A stretch of 29,368 bases of DNA from Lineolata rhizophorae (taxonomy: Eukaryota; Ascomycota; Dothideomycetes; Lineolatales; Lineolataceae): positions 1 to 29,368 of the forward strand of contig MU001687.1 of assembly GCA_010093515.1 (NCBI GenBank). Reading direction: 5' to 3'. Position 1 is the stretch's first letter; the number at the start of each line of letters is the position of its first letter. Position numbers and translations under genes: made by a program. This document shows, in pieces, positions 1 through 11,512 of the stretch. The notes under the pieces were generated by a model. That model was not told the origin of the DNA, searched no databases, and saw only the letters and a program-made list of their open reading frames with translations.

Positions 1-95
1 CTGATTGCCCAGTGCAGCCTGACTTTCTGCCAACATAAACCCTTCACCAACAGACCCTTACCCTAACGTACCAGAGTAAGAGTCTGGGCGTAACA
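1..95 (+). repeat. 5' LTR, 3'-terminal 95 bp only
   Basis: Positions 1-95 are identical base for base to 6887-6981, the end of the 3' LTR. The repeat ends in GTAACA, the inverted match of the TGTTAC that opens the 3' LTR. The rest of this LTR is upstream of the window. Confidence 0.97.
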
Positions 96-97
96 TT

Positions 98-106
98 TTG
101 AAAGCT
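98..106 (+). other. Candidate self-priming primer-binding site
   Basis: TTGAAAGCT begins two bases after the 5' LTR. It is the exact reverse complement of AGCTTTCAA at 6827-6835 in the LTR, just downstream of a TATA-like stretch (6772-6780). No tRNA 3' end complementary to this site was recognised. Self-priming, in which the 5' end of the transcript folds back onto the primer site, is known in Tf1/sushi-type fungal chromoviruses. That this element uses it is inference from a 9-bp match. Confidence 0.5.
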
Positions 107-154
107 CTTGTTCAGACAGTTATCCTGCACTGCTGGGCAATATCTCGAACAACC

Positions 155-3100
155 ATGACGATGTCGAACACCCCCGCAATGACGGAACAGGAAGCCGCCG
201 ACGAGATCAGGCGACTCCAGAAGGAGAACGAGAAACTCCTTGAGGCGGTCACTGCCGCTGGGGCGGTCACTACCGCTAAGACGGTCACTGCAACTGCAAA
301 CGAAAACCGACGGCTCAAGTTCCCGGACCCACCCCGATATGACGGCACGAAGGGATCCCTACGGGGCTACCTCACCCAGATGAGGGCTTACATCGTCTAC
401 TACGCCGGTGACTTGCCTGAGGAAGCAGACAAGGTCATGTGCGCGGCAGCCTTCTTGACTGGGGATGCCCTCATTTGGTTTGAACCTTTCCAGAGGGACT
501 ACCTTGAGAAGGGGCCCGACAATTGCGATCCTGATACGAAGGATATCTTCTCGAGTTTTACCACCTACGAGAAGAAGCTCAAGGCAGCCTTCGGAGATCC
601 CGACGAGGAACGCACCGCAGAGCAGCAGTTGCACAACCTCCGTCAGACGGGATCAGCATCTGACTACGCCGCGAAGTTCCAGCAGATCAGCTCGCGACTG
701 AACTGGGAGGATGGACCTAAGATGGTCGCATTCTACCACGGGCTGAAAGACGACATCAAGGACGAACTCGCGAAGCAAGACCGACCCAAAGAGTTCATGG
801 ACTACATCGCAATGGCAGTCCGCATCGACAATCGCCTGTTCGAGAGACGCATGGAAAAGCGAACTACTCCAGTTCGACCTTATCGAGCTAACATGGGTAA
901 ACGAGTCCCTCCACGCCAGGGAAACACCTCTTGGGGAACCCACCGTGGACCCATGGAACTCGACGCGACACAGCACCGATCCACGAAGAAAGGGATTAAG
1001 TGCTTCAACTGCGGAAAACTAGGGCACTATGCTAGAGAGTGCACCAAACCCCGACAGCCGCAGAAGAAGACTCTGGCTACGATTAATCGAGCCCCCGGCA
1101 ACGGTAAGCCGCAGGGCCAGACCGGGCACACATCGCCAGAGCAAGGACCCGGCACCCTGGATACGAAACCCATCCTCAGAACGATTGCCCTGTTGGGGCG
1201 AGACGAGTACCCAACCCAGAACGAGGAGGGAGAGCACGAACAAGCTCTGAAGCACCTGGCGGGCGCAAAGAGCGCTGAACCGTCAGGAGAAGTATGCGGC
1301 AGCGAGAAAAGCATCGCCCGCACGGTCGCAGCAACGAGACCGCTGACGACGGATCATCTACACGTTACGGTAGAGATCAACGGAAAGTTCGCCGAAGCGC
1401 TCCTAGACAGTGGAGCACAGGGAGACTATGTGTCCCCAGAGTTCGCAAGGCACCACGGCCTCGAACTGCGAACGAAACGGAATCCATATACCGTTCATAA
1501 TATCGAAGGAGACCCCATGACTTTCAACAATGGGACCGTTAATCAGGAGACCGCGCAACTCCCGATCTACGTGAATGGAAAGGAAACTCCGACCATCTTC
1601 GATGTTCTCGATACGGGATCAAGGGACTTCGTGCTGGGAATCCCTTGGTTGCGACGATGGAGTCCGCGAATTGACTGGAAGACTGGCCATCTCCAGTGGG
1701 AAGAAGCTCGTGAGGAAAGGCCCAAGAGCGGTCTCTCAAGGAGCCCCCAGCTACGCGAGACAGTAGCATGTGTGAGAGGATCCAAGAGTGGTCCCTCAGA
1801 ACGTCCCCAGCTATCCGGGATAGCAGCAAACGAGAACGAAAGAGAAGGACCTGAAGACGGCCTCTCGGGACGTGCCGGCCTACTCGGAGCAGTAGAGCTG
1901 AACGGCAATGCGGATGAGCTTGGAGCCATACCGCCGCAGTACCGGAAGTACTGGAAACTCTTCCAGGAAGAGTTGGAAACTGGACTGCCAGCACACAGCC
2001 AGTTTGACCATCATATACCGCTGAAGGAAGGACAACACCCAAAGTTCCACCGAATATATCCCCTGAACCGGGTTCAGGAGGCCGCACTAGAAGAATACTT
2101 AGAGGAGAATTTGCGGAAAGGATACATCCGCCCCTCCACGTCACCAGCGGGATACCCGATCCTATTCGTACCAAAGAAGGACGGGCGACTACGACTTTGC
2201 GTCGACTACAGACAGCTCAACGACATTACAATCAAGAATCGATACCCTCTGCCGTTGATTTCGGAACTACGCGACAAACTACACGGAGCCCAGACCTTCA
2301 CGACGCTAGATCTGAAGGGAGCATACAATCTGATCCGAATAGCAGAAGGGGAAGAGTGGAAGACCGCTTTTCGAACAAAGCGGGGACTCTTCGAGTATCT
2401 GGTAATGCCTTTCGGACTTACCAACGCACCAGCCAGCTTCCAAGCCATGATCAACCATGTCCTTCGGAATTACCTCGACCAGTTCGTGGTAGTCTATCTG
2501 GACGACATCCTGATCTTTTCGAAAACGCCCGAAGAGCATGAACGGCACGTTCACCAGGTGCTCGAGACCCTGGAGGACGCCCAGCTTCTTGTGGAACCCG
2601 GAAAGGCGAAGTGGCATGCACAGGAAGTCCAATACCTCGGCTATTGTATCAGCCCTGGGAAGATTGGCATGGACCCTGAGAAGGTACGAGCCATACGAGA
2701 TTGGCCTCGACCGCAGAACGTCAAGGACGTACGAAGCGTCCTTGGATTCATGAATTTCTACCGACGATTTGTGAAGGGATACAGTCAAGTAGCGACACCC
2801 CTCACACAGCTCACGAAGAAGGATCAAGCCTTCGAATGGAAGGAACCTCAACAGCAGGCCTTCGATACGCTCAAGGAGCTAATTCTCCAAGAACCGATCC
2901 TTACAATCCCGGACCCAGAAAAACCTTTCGAAGTCGAAACCGATGCTTCAGAATTCGCTCTGGGAGGACAACTTGGACAACGAGACGAGGAAGGACGACT
3001 TCATCCCGTCGCCTTCTACTCGAAGAAGCTCAACGGACCAGAGCTCAACTATCAGATCCACGACAAGGAACTGATGGCTATCATAGAAGCCTTCAGAGAA

Positions 3101-3300
3101 TGGAAGCACTACCTCACAGGAACGAAACATCCTGTCAAGGTCTACACGGATCACAAGAATCTGACCAACTTCACGACCACGAAAGCCCTCAATAAACGTC
3201 AAACACGATGGGCAGAGTTTCTTTCGGAATTCAATTTCACGATTATCTATCGGAAAGGCACTGAGAATGGGCGAGCAGACGCGCTCAGCCGACGCAGTGA
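155..3300 (+). CDS. Retroelement gag, protease, reverse transcriptase and RNase H region (fossil)
   Basis: Bounds are approximate. The ATG at 155 is the first good start (MTMSNT). Gag has a retrotransposon-gag type domain at about 359-818 and one CCHC zinc knuckle (CFNCGKLGHYAREC) at 1001-1042. The protease active site LLDSGA lies near 1399-1416. Reverse transcriptase spans about 2000-2560, with its catalytic YLDD at 2495-2506. RNase H covers about 2900-3280 and begins with the ETDASEFALGGQL block. These products would form the particle and make cDNA. Codon use is less GC-rich than in the flanking host genes. Family assignment is firm. Confidence 0.93.
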
Positions 3301-3399
3301 CCTCGAACCGGACGTACCCCCGCAGCAAAGTTGACTATTGCGAAAGGACTCGGAAGGGAATCTGACGACAGGACATGAGGTGTCTACCGTCGCCAGAGA

Positions 3400-4708
3400 T
3401 GAGGCCCGACTGATTAAGGAAGTCCACGAAGCCAAGGCACACGGCCACCAAGGAGTGTGGAAGACCTACCAGCGTCTCCGACAACATCACCAGTTCAAGG
3501 GAACTAGGGCGCAAGTCGAGCAGGTGATCCGCAACTGCGATCTCTGTAAGAAAAGCAAGGCCCCTAGACACAAACCCTACGGAGAACTCCGACCACTCCA
3601 AATACCCGATGCACCATGGCACTCAGTATCATTGGACTTCATCACCGGACTACCCCCTTCGACCGAGCCTCTTACGCAAACGATGTACGACAGTATCTTG
3701 GTGATAGTCGACCGACTCACTAAGTATTCGTACTTCATTCCTTTTGTCAAGAACGGGAACACGCTTCAGTTTGTCTACGTGTTCATACGGAATATCGTAG
3801 CAAACCATGGAATGCCACGAGAACTTATCTCCGACAGAGACAAGCTCTTCACCAGTCACTTTTGGCAAGCCCTCGCAGCACGACTCGGAGTACGACATCG
3901 TCTATCCACAGCATTTCACCCTCAGACAGATGGACAGACAGAAAGAACGAATCAAACACTGGAACAGTACCTCCGATGCTATGTCAACTACCCGCAGAAC
4001 GACTGGGTGCAGCTCTTGCCGCTAGCACAATTCGCGTATAATAGTGCATTCAACGAATCCACGAAGAAAACACCGATGTACGCCAACTATGGGTACACAC
4101 CTACGGTATACGGCGAAGCCAGGGAAGCAAAGGATGCCCCTGCAGCCACGAAAGCAGCCGAACAACTCAAACAGCTGCATGAAGAACTCAAGACAGATCT
4201 CCAATTCATCCAGCGACGCATGACAAGATACGCTGACAAACGAAGGATGAAGGGACCACCCTTCAAGGAGGGAGATAAAGTCTACCTTGCTCGCAAAAAC
4301 ATCAAAACAAAGCGACCAAGCGACAAACTTGACTACAAACAGATTGGACCATTCAAAGTCAAGCGAAAGATTTCAGACACTAACTACGAACTGTCACTAC
4401 CACGATCAATGCAGATCCACCCCATTTTTCATATTTCGCTGTTGGAACCAGCACCACCAAGGGCACAGCTCGATAAGACGACAGAGCTGGAGGACGAAGA
4501 AGAGTTTGAGGTCGAGAAGATCCTCGATCACCGAGGAGAAGGACCAGAAACAGAGTACCTTGTGAAGTGGAAAGGCTGCAATGACGACGAAAACACATGG
4601 GAGCCAATCGAACACCTCACGAACGCGCAGGCCACGCTGGCAGAGTACCACAAGCTGGCAAAAGCCACCCGCCTGACGAAGGCACCAAAAGGCGGTGTGC
4701 GGCGCTAA
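3400..4708 (+). CDS. Retroelement integrase with C-terminal chromodomain (fossil)
   Basis: Bounds are approximate at the 5' side. An HHCC zinc-binding region comes first (CDLCKKSK near 3536-3559). The DDE core follows: SLDFITGLP, then the ISDRD block, then FHPQTDGQTERTN with the catalytic glutamate. A GPY/F-like segment (YKQIGPFKVK) and the HPIFHISLL block typical of gypsy integrases come next. A chromodomain (EFEVEKILDH to YLVKWKGC and NTWEP) occupies about 4502-4660. In chromoviruses this domain binds methylated histone H3 and steers integration to heterochromatin, which may bear on its site beside rDNA (inference). Confidence 0.93.
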
Positions 4709-4711
4709 CTC

Positions 4712-4736
4712 TGCAATTTCATTGGACGAAATTGCA
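4712..4736 (+). repeat. Perfect 9-bp inverted repeat just after the integrase region
   Basis: TGCAATTTC (4712-4720) and GAAATTGCA (4728-4736) are perfect reverse complements around a 7-base loop. The stem starts three bases after the integrase-chromodomain stop codon. It could fold as an RNA hairpin between this region and the extra downstream gene. Its function is unknown. Confidence 0.75.
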
Positions 4737-4945
4737 CGAACGGCCCGCAGGGCGAACGACCCCGCAGGAGCCTGGTGGAACAGAACCACGGCAGACCAAT
4801 CATTTACCGCCCCCACGACTGCCTAAAATTTCGTCGCGTCCAACAGACAACTCACCGAAAACAACTCTCGCGACAAGGAGCGTTGCATATTAGACCCATT
4901 TGGCCGACCAGCCCAAGCACTACAAGAGTCTCTCTCTTCTTCATC

Positions 4946-6460
4946 ATGGACGGACCCTCGCAGTCCACGAAAAGGCGGCTCGACACGAGTCTCGAGACCC
5001 CTTCATTCCCTACCGCGAAACGAGCACGATTATCCAAGACGGACCTGCAGCAACCAGCACCGAAGCACCCTAGAGCCTCGTTTCTCGAAGACCACGTCGG
5101 ACCGACCGACGCAATTTCCGAGTGGCTCGAGTCTGTCGGATCAGACCGAGAACGACGCTGCCGGTCAGACAGCTACCTTCACGCCTCGAGCGACGACCCC
5201 ATCCCAAGGGACCTCACGAGATCAGCGCCACAGATGGCCTACACACGAGATGCCGATGGATTCGCGGTGCCACCGACACCAGATTCATATGCCGGATCAA
5301 TTGCGCCGTCGATCGCACCATCAGACGACACCGGCGCCACCCCTGGCTCGAGTCGATCATCAAGAGGCGTTGAAGACTCCTCCTACCGAGACCAGAACCT
5401 AGCCTTCAACCATGTCTACATGCGCGAACGATACGAGCAATTCCCCGAACATGTGTCCAGCCTTGTTGATCACGTCCGCCGGGATCGTGAATCCCCGGGA
5501 CCATCACCCGATGAGGTGTGGCAAGACATGGACCTTACCGCCCTTGAGACAAAGGGGCTCGACGAGCCAGAAGTGGAGGACTACTTCAGGGACAGAGTGT
5601 TCCCCAAACCCAAGCAAGGGGACGACCTAAGACGCAGCGACAGACAGCCGATGTCTAGGTATGCCGTCCCCAACGCCGGACCACAATTCAAAGTCAGCAA
5701 CCCATTCCCCGACATGCTATACGGATACAGCCGTCATCACGCATTTCCCAACCAGCAGACGCAACTCATCTCCATGGGAAACGAAATGAATGGAACAGCC
5801 AACAGCCAGAGTCTGATGTACCCATTCTTCGTCATCGAATTTAAGGGAAACGGTGGAGATCTGTGGGTAGCCACGAACCAATGCCTTGGAGCATCCACGT
5901 CCTGCATCAACATCGCCGAACGCCTCAATGACCAACTAAGGAAGTGCAAGAGCAGCAAAGTCAAACCAGTTGACAGCACCGCGTTCAGCATCGCCATGAA
6001 TGGCGAAGTCGCACGACTCTACGTCTCATGGAAGCACAGCGACTTGGACTACTACATGCAGAAAGTCGATAACTTTCTACTCCAGAAACCCCAGGACTAC
6101 ATCGAATTCCGCAAGCACGTCAAGAACATCATCGACTGGGGGAAGGACACCCGTTTGAAGGAGATTCGAGAATCATTGGACACTCTTTTGGAAGAAAGCC
6201 GGAAGCGAACCTCCGAAACGGCGAAATCTCGCCCGCCACCGACTAAGGACTCAACCAGCAGGAGCAAAAGGCACAAACCTCCTCCATCGCGCAAAAGCAG
6301 CAGCAGCGGGCACGACACCAAGCAAGCACGAAGCGAACCAGAAGACCAGTATTGGCAATGGAGCGAAACAGCCGGACAGTACTACCATGTCCACTCCGAC
6401 AGGACCATCGAATGGGCACCACCAACGCAACAGTCTCCTCACCCGGAAAGCGACTGTTGA
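4946..6460 (+). CDS. Extra third gene of the chromovirus: fungal PD-(D/E)XK-like (DUF7924-like) protein
   Basis: This uninterrupted 504-codon gene lies in sense orientation between integrase and the polypurine tract. The ATG at 4946 follows a pyrimidine-rich leader (TCTCTCTTCTTC). Residues 1-30 are basic and NLS-like (STKRRL, AKRARLSK), and 60-240 are low-complexity. A compact domain spans about 245-425. It contains PD (255-256) in a PFPDMLYGY block, then YPFFVIEFKG with E298-x-K300, then ATNQCLG and a helical IAERLN segment. That D-x42-E-x-K spacing fits a PD-(D/E)XK nuclease-like fold. The block resembles the fungal-specific DUF7924 family from memory. A basic Ser-rich linker (428-465) is followed by a WW/OCRE-like tail (QYWQWSETAGQYYHV). 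No signal peptide, membrane segment or envelope feature is seen. It looks like a captured host gene; nuclease activity is inference. Confidence 0.82.
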   Translation: MDGPSQSTKRRLDTSLETPSFPTAKRARLSKTDLQQPAPKHPRASFLEDHVGPTDAISEWLESVGSDRERRCRSDSYLHASSDDPIPRDLTRSAPQMAYTRDADGFAVPPTPDSYAGSIAPSIAPSDDTGATPGSSRSSRGVEDSSYRDQNLAFNHVYMRERYEQFPEHVSSLVDHVRRDRESPGPSPDEVWQDMDLTALETKGLDEPEVEDYFRDRVFPKPKQGDDLRRSDRQPMSRYAVPNAGPQFKVSNPFPDMLYGYSRHHAFPNQQTQLISMGNEMNGTANSQSLMYPFFVIEFKGNGGDLWVATNQCLGASTSCINIAERLNDQLRKCKSSKVKPVDSTAFSIAMNGEVARLYVSWKHSDLDYYMQKVDNFLLQKPQDYIEFRKHVKNIIDWGKDTRLKEIRESLDTLLEESRKRTSETAKSRPPPTKDSTSRSKRHKPPPSRKSSSSGHDTKQARSEPEDQYWQWSETAGQYYHVHSDRTIEWAPPTQQSPHPESDC

Positions 6461-6493
6461 ACACATCAATACGGTCGTTGGGACATCGACCAT

Positions 6494-6508
6494 GAAGGAG
6501 GGGAAACC
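6494..6508 (+). other. Polypurine tract
   Basis: GAAGGAGGGGAAA (6494-6506) is a 13-base purine run followed by CC and then the LTR start TGTTAC. The two-base offset here mirrors the two bases between the 5' LTR and the candidate primer site. This is what integrase removal of two bases from each cDNA end would give. Confidence 0.85.
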
Positions 6509-6545
6509 TGTTACAACCTGCCAAGCCGTGGCAGCGTTGCAAGCA

Positions 6546-6565
6546 CGTGACCACGGGTGGTCACG
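6546..6565. promoter_or_regulatory. U3 palindrome overlapping an E-box
   Basis: CGTGACCAC and GTGGTCACG form a perfect 9-bp inverted repeat around GG, and the left arm overlaps CACGTG (6544-6549). TGACCAC then recurs in two tandem 15-mers at 6594-6608 and 6609-6623 (TGACCACAGGGCAAT and TGACCACGGGGCAAT, one difference). The same GACCAC core thus occurs three times in U3, which suggests protein-binding sites. The binding factor is unknown. Confidence 0.55.
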
Positions 6566-6781
6566 ACACCACGGCACGACATCAGGTCAGGAGTGACCAC
6601 AGGGCAATTGACCACGGGGCAATAGCACCGAGACAAATGGCACAAGACCTACAGGCAGGAGGACAGTGATGCGACCAGGTGGTGATAGCACCTGGGATGG
6701 CACCTGTGATGCAGTGTCTCAGGCGAGTCACTGGACACAGCCGCCCAACAGGCCGATGCCTGTTGCTTGAGAATTATTTAG

Positions 6782-6806
6782 GAGCAGCGAGCTTCCCTCG
6801 CTGCTC
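6782..6806 (+). repeat. LTR hairpin, 10-bp perfect stem
   Basis: GAGCAGCGAG (6782-6791) pairs perfectly with CTCGCTGCTC (6797-6806) around CTTCC. It lies between the TATA-like stretch and the AGCTTTCAA that matches the primer-binding site, so it is close to the likely transcription start. Confidence 0.6.
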
Positions 6807-6981
6807 ACACCAGTCTTTACCTAGACAGCTTTCAATCTAAGTCTTTGTCTGATTCTCAGAGAAGAGGCACCAAGCCTTACGCCACCCTGATTGCCCAGTG
6901 CAGCCTGACTTTCTGCCAACATAAACCCTTCACCAACAGACCCTTACCCTAACGTACCAGAGTAAGAGTCTGGGCGTAACA

Positions 6982-7184
6982 GCCGGAGGCCTATTCGTAT
7001 CCGACTACGACGTGCGGGATCAAATCGCCCCGTTCCGGCACGGATTCTGACTTAGAGGCGTTCAGCCATAATCCGGCAGATGGTAGCTTCGCGGCACTGC
7101 CCGGTCGGACAGCCGCAAAAACCAATTATCTGAATCCGCGGTTCCTCTCGTACTAAGCGGAATTACCGTTGGGGCGACGGTCAT

Positions 7185-7229
<45 letters not shown>
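6982..7229 (-). rRNA. 28S (LSU) rRNA fragment, 3'-terminal region with sarcin-ricin loop
   Basis: Read on the minus strand this is fungal large-subunit rRNA. It opens with AGCTGGGTTTAGACCGTCGT and includes the sarcin-ricin loop AGTACGAGAGGAACC at 7140-7154. It continues through GGCTGAACGCCTCTAAGTCA into the more variable GGATACGAATAGG part. Homology stops abruptly after the conserved AGCT at 7226-7229, where normal 28S would continue upstream with a TTCACCC..ACGTG-type sequence. On the other side it is cut by the LTR end. It is therefore an orphan piece of about 248 bp, not a working rRNA gene, unless the window joins unrelated sequence. Confidence 0.93.
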
Positions 7230-7460
7230 ACACCCGAGAGCTTTCATCGTGCGTCGAGCGCGCAGGAAAGGTGGTCGATTTCGCAAGACCCGAACAACAC
7301 TATCTAACACGAAGAGGAAAAAGAACAAAGTCGCGCCGAGGTCCTACGTTCGCAAGTCGCGCGGACCGATTCATGACCGCACCCTTCCGCCGCCCGATTC
7401 CTCCCGACCATGCTCCGGTAACGCCGCCCCAGGAACCGCGCGTGCCCCGTCACGCTCGCA

Positions 7461-10495: not shown

Positions 10496-11512
10496 ATGGC
10501 GACCGCGGCGCCGGACCCCGAGGCGCCGCAGACGGCCCAGGACTTCATCGACTCGCAGCTGCGGCTCGAGGCCGACGCGCGCGAGGCGCTGCCCTACGTG
10601 CGCACCCTCCCCTCCCGNNNNNNNNNNNNNNNNNNNNNNNNNNNNNNNNNNNNNNNNNNNNNNNNNNNNNNNNNNNNNNNNNNNNNNNNNNNNNNNNNNN
10701 NNNNNNNNNNNNNNNNNNNNNNNNNNNNNNNNNNNNNNNNNNNNNNNNNNNNNNNNNNNNNNNNNNNNNNNNNNNNNNNNNNNNNNNNNNNNNNNNNNNN
10801 NNNNNNNNNNNNNNNNNNNNNNNNNNNNNNNNCCCCCCCCCTCGCCGCTGACGCCCGGGGCCCGCGCAGCGATTCGACGCCTGCACCCGCCCGCTCGGCG
10901 CCCTGCGCCAGAGCCTGTTCTCGTGCCTGACGTGCAACCCGCCCCCGCGCGACCCGGCCGGCGTCTGCTACGCCTGCTCCATCGCGTGCCACGGCGAGCA
11001 CGCCCTCGTCGAGCTCTTCTCCAAGCGCGACTTCGTCTGCGACTGCGGCACCGCCCGCCTGCCGCCGTCGGCGCCCTGCGCGCTGCGCGGCGGCGCGCGC
11101 TCCGAGACGCCCGCGCCCGCCAACCGCTACAACCACAACTTCGCCAACCGCTTCTGCGGCTGCGGCGGCGACTACGACGCCCACGCCGAGACCGGCACCA
11201 TGTTCCAGTGCGTCGGGCTCGGCTCCGCCGACGACGGCGGCTGCGGCGAGGACTGGTGGCACCCGGAGTGCGTGCTCGGGCTGCCGCGGGACGGCCGCCG
11301 GCCGCGGCGCGCCGGGGGCGGGGACGGGGACGGGGACGGGGACGGGGACGACGAGCCGCCGCTGCCGCCGGGGTTCCCCGCCGAGGACGACTTCGACGCC
11401 TTCGTGTGCTACCGGTGCGTCGCCGCCTTCCCGTGGATCCGCCGGTACGCGGGCTCCGACGGCTTCCTCCCGCCCGTCTACCGCGCCGGGCCGGGCGACG
11501 GCGACGGCGCGC

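What the first reader, a model, noticed from the sequence alone, without database searches (positions are those of the whole stretch)
4946..6460. Chromovirus carrying an extra, intact gene for a fungal PD-(D/E)XK-like (DUF7924-like) protein
Seen: a 504-codon uninterrupted gene in sense orientation lies between integrase-chromodomain and the polypurine tract, inside one LTR pair. It has an NLS-like start, a compact domain with PD-x42-ExK spacing (D256, E298, K300), and a WW/OCRE-like tail. It has no envelope features. From memory the core resembles the fungal-specific DUF7924 family. Inference: the element captured a host gene with nuclease-fold ancestry and may use it in cDNA handling, integration or rivalry with other elements. 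Gypsy-class elements with a non-envelope third gene of this kind are, to my knowledge, little described.
Basis: partly seen in the sequence, partly recalled or inferred. Interest (0 to 1): 0.82.

Follow-up and report, generated by a model that had tools for sequence, protein, structure and literature searches.

The report
Fungal retrotransposon carrying a nuclease-fold gene
A fungal LTR retrotransposon carries an intact extra gene for a DUF7924 protein predicted to fold like DNA-cutting enzymes, and traces of the same gene-next-to-repeat arrangement in two fungi of another class suggest that it belongs to a travelling element and is not a one-off accident.

Summary
A 504-codon sense gene lies between integrase-chromodomain and the polypurine tract of a Ty3/Gypsy chromovirus. 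It is a DUF7924 member (PF25545, E=5.5e-29). Its modelled core (pLDDT 91) resembles PD-(D/E)XK nucleases, and D256, E298, K300 and Q312 are conserved. The WW/OCRE tail has no Pfam support. The assembly matches Lineolata rhizophorae (Dothideomycetes).

New here: the gene is a resident of the element. In Bombardia bombarda and Nemania bipapillata (Sordariomycetes) DUF7924 proteins run on into the same 3' spacer, polypurine tract and LTR start. Codon usage fits the element's gag-pol, unlike 14 of 14 other DUF7924 copies tested. Element-type genes form one clade spread over three classes. Residues 160-232, before the core, are a variable mosaic.

Function is inferred: first choice, a nuclear nuclease with a variable recognition segment used against rivals or host defence; main rival, cDNA or integration help. 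Extra ORFs in LTR elements are a known kind; I found no report of one with DUF7924. Against: no other copy exists in this genome, no whole pol-DUF-LTR unit was seen in another fungus, and the Nemania copy has lost the catalytic glutamate.

The parts
1..95 (+). last 95 bp of the 5' LTR (the contig begins inside it)
   Evidence: identical to 6887-6981; window starts at C18:1
155..3334 (+). Gag-protease-RT-RNase H open frame, 1059 aa
   Evidence: Pfam Retrotrans_gag, zf-CCHC, gag-asp_proteas, RVT_1, RT_RNaseH
3332..3334 (+). in-frame TGA (followed by CTA) between RNase H and integrase
3683..4708 (+). integrase, SH3_Tf2-1 and chromodomain (ATG ORF; the frame is open from 3335)
   Evidence: Pfam rve (below its cut-off), SH3_Tf2-1, Chromo
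4946..6460 (+). third gene: DUF7924 protein, 504 aa
   Evidence: PF25545 E=5.5e-29; open frame
5423..5641 (+). codons 160-232: variable, mosaic segment before the core
5678..6235 (+). codons 245-430: PD-(D/E)XK-like core; P255 D256, E298, K300, Q312
6350..6430 (+).
   Evidence: no Pfam row up to E=10; short strands in the model
6495..6508 (+). polypurine tract
   Evidence: sequence next to the LTR start
6509..6981 (+). 3' LTR, 473 bp, TGTTAC/GTAACA ends

Best explanation
The element is a chromovirus of filamentous ascomycetes with a resident sense third gene. Shown by computation: the third gene is a DUF7924 protein with a PD-(D/E)XK-type core and conserved active-site residues; in two other fungi a DUF7924 gene of the same clade sits against the same polypurine tract and LTR start; the gene shares the codon usage of the element's gag-pol; and its close relatives form one shallow clade in hosts of three fungal classes. 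Inferred: it was captured from the stand-alone fungal DUF7924 family and has since travelled with the element, also between species. Inferred mechanism: the protein is made from its own or a spliced message, enters the nucleus through its basic N-terminus, and binds or cuts DNA with the PD-(D/E)XK core, while the preceding variable segment (160-232), exchanged among copies, sets which partner or target is met. This pattern fits a role in conflict (against rival elements or host defence) better than a fixed replication step.
Confidence: 0.45

Rival explanations
1. Same resident gene, but it serves the element's own replication: trimming cDNA ends or flaps, or nicking chromosomal DNA to open integration or recombination sites.
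For: Placed beside integrase, nuclear-type N-terminus, nuclease-type core. Rotifer LTR elements carry an ORF3 related to DEDDy exonucleases (PMC5408684, passages).
Against: The other intact chromovirus of the same genome does without it; a constant substrate does not predict the mosaic segment.
Confidence: 0.25
2. The protein is a self-preserving addiction or killer-type gene: cells that lose the element suffer.
Against: No partner or antidote gene in the element; Z in this range is often chance.
Confidence: 0.1
3. A passenger: a transduced gene without function for the element.
For: Relatives with long branches and altered catalytic residues exist (P0006 E298K; long end branches of P0016, P0036, P0085, P0105).
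Against: Full-length relatives of 83-86% identity in several genera, core more conserved than the preceding segment, element-like codon usage. Databases favour intact genes, which weakens the first point.
Confidence: 0.15
4. Artefact: a host gene joined to the element by misassembly or a nested insertion.
For: The copy sits at a contig end beside a 28S rRNA fragment, where assemblies often fail.
Against: No other repeat of 20 bases or more inside 1-7400, tight fit to the polypurine tract, and the same junction in two independent assemblies.
Confidence: 0.03

Closest known systems
Fungal chromoviruses with an additional ORF of unknown function, or with dUTPase (Novikova et al. 2010, PMC2864245; section 5 and passages read)
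   Same: Ty3/Gypsy chromovirus of fungi with a gene beyond gag-pol
   Different: The text read does not say which clade carries the additional ORF or what it encodes; the named extra domain there is dUTPase, in basidiomycete and Tuber elements
Bdelloid rotifer LTR elements with enzymatic ORF3 (PMC5408684, abstract and passages read)
   Same: Non-envelope enzyme gene after pol, including DEDDy exonuclease and GDSL esterase types
   Different: Other fold families, other host kingdom
Boty-like elements of Botrytis cinerea with brtn (PMC8365987 and PMC5987419, passages; Zhao et al. 2011 seen only as a reference title)
   Same: Fungal Gypsy element with an extra gene
Plant LTR elements with additional ORFs (PMC7264820, abstract, outline and passages) and orchid Gypsy elements with an AlkB-type demethylase (PMC9289625, passages)
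   Same: Captured accessory domain kept in many copies
   Different: Other domains, plants
Fungal DNA transposons with TET/JBP dioxygenase (PMC12730594, abstract and outline read)
   Same: Accessory gene captured by fungal mobile elements, proposed there to help escape silencing
   Different: DNA transposons, other enzyme
Stand-alone fungal DUF7924 genes (uneven copy number in Neurospora, PMC13412767, one passage)
   Same: Same domain and active-site pattern
   Different: No gag, pol or integrase found in the flanks looked at

Membership tests
DUF7924 (PF25545) | profile match above the curated cut-off | tested here: met
   101.8 bits against a cut-off of 27, residues 245-410
PD-(D/E)XK superfamily | core fold | tested here: met
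   [not shown]
PD-(D/E)XK superfamily | catalytic P-D...E-x-K signature | tested here: met
   PD255-256, E298, K300 present and conserved
PD-(D/E)XK superfamily | metal-dependent nuclease activity | not testable with these tools
   needs purified protein
Chromovirus (Ty3/Gypsy LTR retrotransposon with chromodomain) | gag, PR-RT-RH-IN order and C-terminal chromodomain | tested here: met
Chromovirus (Ty3/Gypsy LTR retrotransposon with chromodomain) | LTR pair with polypurine tract and primer site | tested here: inconclusive
   3' LTR and polypurine tract clear, 5' LTR cut by the contig end; possible 9-nt self-priming match, reached by 33 of 1000 shuffled LTRs
Chromovirus (Ty3/Gypsy LTR retrotransposon with chromodomain) | target-site duplication | not testable with these tools
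   left flank is missing from the assembly
   no Pfam row for it up to E=10; three short strands predicted
Retroviral envelope gene | membrane segment | tested here: not met
   best 19-residue hydropathy 0.86

The most novel reading that the evidence does not exclude
A horizontally mobile fungal chromovirus lineage uses a captured DUF7924 nuclease as a weapon or counter-defence: a conserved PD-(D/E)XK core joined to a variable recognition segment that copies exchange by template switching, spreading across fungal classes together with the element.
Probability: 0.3. Interest if true: 0.82.

Novelty: new variant of a known kind. Interest (0 to 1): 0.6.

Why it matters
DUF7924 is a large fungal family without known function (37 profile matches in this genome; among the families with the most uneven copy number in Neurospora, PMC13412767). 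Tying one lineage of it to a retrotransposon gives a lead on why the family spreads and varies, and suggests that fungal chromoviruses can keep a nuclease-fold accessory gene across fungal classes. Because candidate catalytic residues and a variable segment are mapped, the role can be tested with purified protein.

Tried and rejected
Led nowhere: scans of viral contigs with the DUF protein, its alignment and the integrase and of genome contigs gave no relative, so no DNA of other fungi could be read. Contig lengths were compared by eye between the DUF list and the gag-pol and integrase lists (top 120 of 459, 2456 and 233 hits): none shared; masking of pol in annotations and short contigs make this weak evidence against. 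PADLOC up to E=1: no match. Sequence search of the PDB: four matches, none under E 1.5. The Rfam gathering search gave no hit in the window; the permissive one gave the 28S fragment. Foldseek against the PDB listed no PD-(D/E)XK nuclease in its top 50; the nuclease matches come from the VIA-align second look.

Considered and rejected: envelope; a passenger of a mobile stand-alone DUF7924 unit (the seven nearest in-genome loci share DNA with the element only inside the coding region, from about 5079 on); a RIP-damaged element (dinucleotide indices ordinary); the in-frame TGA at 3332 as a shared trait (of 120 listed gag-pol relatives 118 match the RNase H end and 109 of those also match the integrase start; P0121 ends within the linker; P0122 skips the spot in a doubtful gene model). 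The upstream flank gave only matches at control level: P0259 1e-4 and P0222 0.002, reversed-flank best 1.5e-4. The N-terminal extension of P0016 (Trichoderma austrokoningii) resembles the upstream spacer by eye and within one gapped alignment but did not reach the list, so I do not count it.

Rows left out before counts: the tree used 68 of 120 listed relatives, the window and 3 in-genome copies; P0106 and L014 are the same gene. One search used the same 68 (27 element-type, 41 others) and 14 in-genome copies: 11 stop-free Pfam matches and 3 open clade-B frames. One search used the window and 22 of the 27; five (P0025, P0036, P0044, P0085, P0105) were left out as long-branch or short. The run-on tails of P0006 and P0017 were trimmed. 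One search computed distances on 21 of those 23. One search used 12 of 27 element-type proteins plus the window, 36 of 41 others plus 3 in-genome copies, and 6 distant in-genome copies.

Full report
What is there. The window opens inside the end of a 5' LTR and carries a nearly complete chromovirus, 1-6981. In one reading frame follow Gag-protease-RT-RNase H (155-3334), integrase with SH3_Tf2 and chromodomain (to 4708) and a 504-aa gene (4946-6460); the only stops in that frame are TGA 3332, TAA 4706 and TGA 6458. A polypurine tract and a 473-bp LTR with TGTTAC/GTAACA ends close it. The shared frame is not remarkable by itself: the 79-codon spacer before the third gene stays open in 312 of 2000 shuffles.

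Host. The in-genome DUF7924 copy L014 holds all 524 residues of a protein named as Lineolata rhizophorae (P0106) as exact 8-mers, so the assembly is that species or very near it; it is a Dothideomycete.

Is it the element's own gene? Four lines. (1) Junction: P0006 (Nemania bipapillata) ends in a peptide that is the translation of the window's 3' spacer, polypurine tract and LTR start. Among all 360 fetched proteins two show this, P0006 (81% over 32 residues, E 1e-14) and P0017 (Bombardia bombarda, 97% over 31, E 9e-18); reversed flanks gave nothing better than 1.5e-4. These are gene models running past the stop, which is what makes the neighbouring non-coding DNA visible. (2) Composition: at fourfold sites A exceeds T by 0.22 in the gene, 0.16 in gag-pol and 0.32 in integrase, but by -0.17 to 0.09 in 14 of 14 other DUF7924 copies tested. 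A codon-usage likelihood test agrees: +31.4 for the gene, negative for 14 of 14 copies (two of them close to zero, -1.2 and -4.1), for the other chromovirus and for MCM5. (3) Genome survey: DUF7924 has 37 matches (about 30 places by my grouping) and RVT_1 has 15; only the window pairs them within 10 kb. One exception to tell: a decayed gag-pol fragment (35%, with stops) lies about 9 kb from the DUF7924 remnant on C19. Flanks of eight nearer copies gave no gag-pol or integrase match, and 48 open frames picked from those loci gave housekeeping families such as HSP70, diphthamide synthesis, UPF3 and kinases. Assembly gaps at L017 and L019 could hide something. (4) The other intact chromovirus of this genome, C33, has no third gene between integrase and its repeat.

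Spread. Element-type genes form one group of 28 rows (100/100), from Xylariales, Sordariales, Hypocreales, Diaporthales, Helotiales and Pleosporales besides the window's fungus (orders are recall), with several copies in some genomes and an almost unresolved backbone. With distant DUF7924 copies as outgroup the group is one clade (97/98) nested inside the stand-alone genes, joined to a degenerate copy of the same genome (L015) and a Diaporthe gene (96/94); the outgroup branches are very long and the tool warns of it. The out-of-frame match of 124 of 131 residues between Bombardia and the window, running through the coding end into non-coding DNA of two fungal classes, points to recent horizontal transfer; contamination of either assembly is not excluded. 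Integrase relatives of 85-90% (P0241 Bionectria ochroleuca, P0242, P0243, P0244, P0248) and a Zalerion pol at 82% over 36% of the query fit the same picture for pol, but none of these was seen with an element-type DUF7924 gene.

A clue to function. Within 23 element-type copies the core is conserved (mean pairwise identity 0.79-0.93 per 20 residues at 301-420) and the disordered N-terminus is 0.76-0.90, but 161-200 falls to 0.60-0.66. Two alternative blocks at 166-180 and two at 203-232 occur in all four combinations (9, 2, 5 and 3 of 23 copies; 4 are of other types), and pairwise distances in these blocks hardly follow those of the core (r -0.02 to 0.18; 21 copies); even the two core halves correlate only 0.33, so recombination is probably general. 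Retroelements exchange segments by template switching; here the exchange brings variety just before the catalytic core. I take this as a recognition module; relaxed constraint is the alternative. One junction copy, P0006, has lysine in place of the catalytic glutamate.

What is known. One paper in the library names DUF7924, as a family of uneven copy number in Neurospora (PMC13412767, one passage). Searches for extra ORFs and captured genes in LTR elements and for horizontal transfer returned the precedents listed under Closest known systems; in the listings and passages I saw, none describes DUF7924 in an element. The library lacks most subscription papers, so this is not proof of absence.

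Verdict. The observation and the family call are right, residency in the element is well supported, and the function is open. It is a new variant of a known kind: an LTR element with an accessory gene, here a nuclease-fold gene of a family without known function.

Noticed in passing
window 3332-3340: In-frame TGA followed by CTA between RNase H and integrase, with the frame open on both sides; TGA-CTA is, from memory, a leaky stop context. Could be a programmed read-through or a plain inactivating stop.
   Followed up: partly
window 6982 to about 7270 (-): Fragment of the 3' part of a eukaryotic 28S rRNA lies directly after the 3' LTR, at the start of contig C18; the element seems inserted in a cut-off rDNA unit beside an MCM5-like gene (gene name by eye).
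   Followed up: partly
window 96-115 and 6827-6835: Nine bases after the 5' LTR are complementary to AGCTTTCAA inside the LTR, as in self-priming Tf1-type elements (recalled); 33 of 1000 shuffled LTRs do as well.
   Followed up: partly
G000 contig C31 (154750, 236631, 269519, 292113, 300641, 303159-303743, 316937): Seven places with DUF7924 matches on one 320-kb contig, some intact, some decayed.
   Followed up: no
L017 3613-8882: A 5,270-base N run sits inside a stand-alone DUF7924 copy, splitting its 5' part from the rest, as if an unassembled repeat had jumped in.
   Followed up: no
L014, L015, L016, L017, L018 upstream of the DUF7924 frame: Stand-alone copies share some 300-500 bp of DNA upstream of the coding frame, absent from the element; perhaps an old common promoter.
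   Followed up: partly
[not shown]
   Followed up: no
G000:C19:377777-378022: Decayed gag-pol fragment about 9 kb from a DUF7924 remnant.
   Followed up: no
window 10618-10832: N run inside a long GC-rich open frame of the host part.
   Followed up: no
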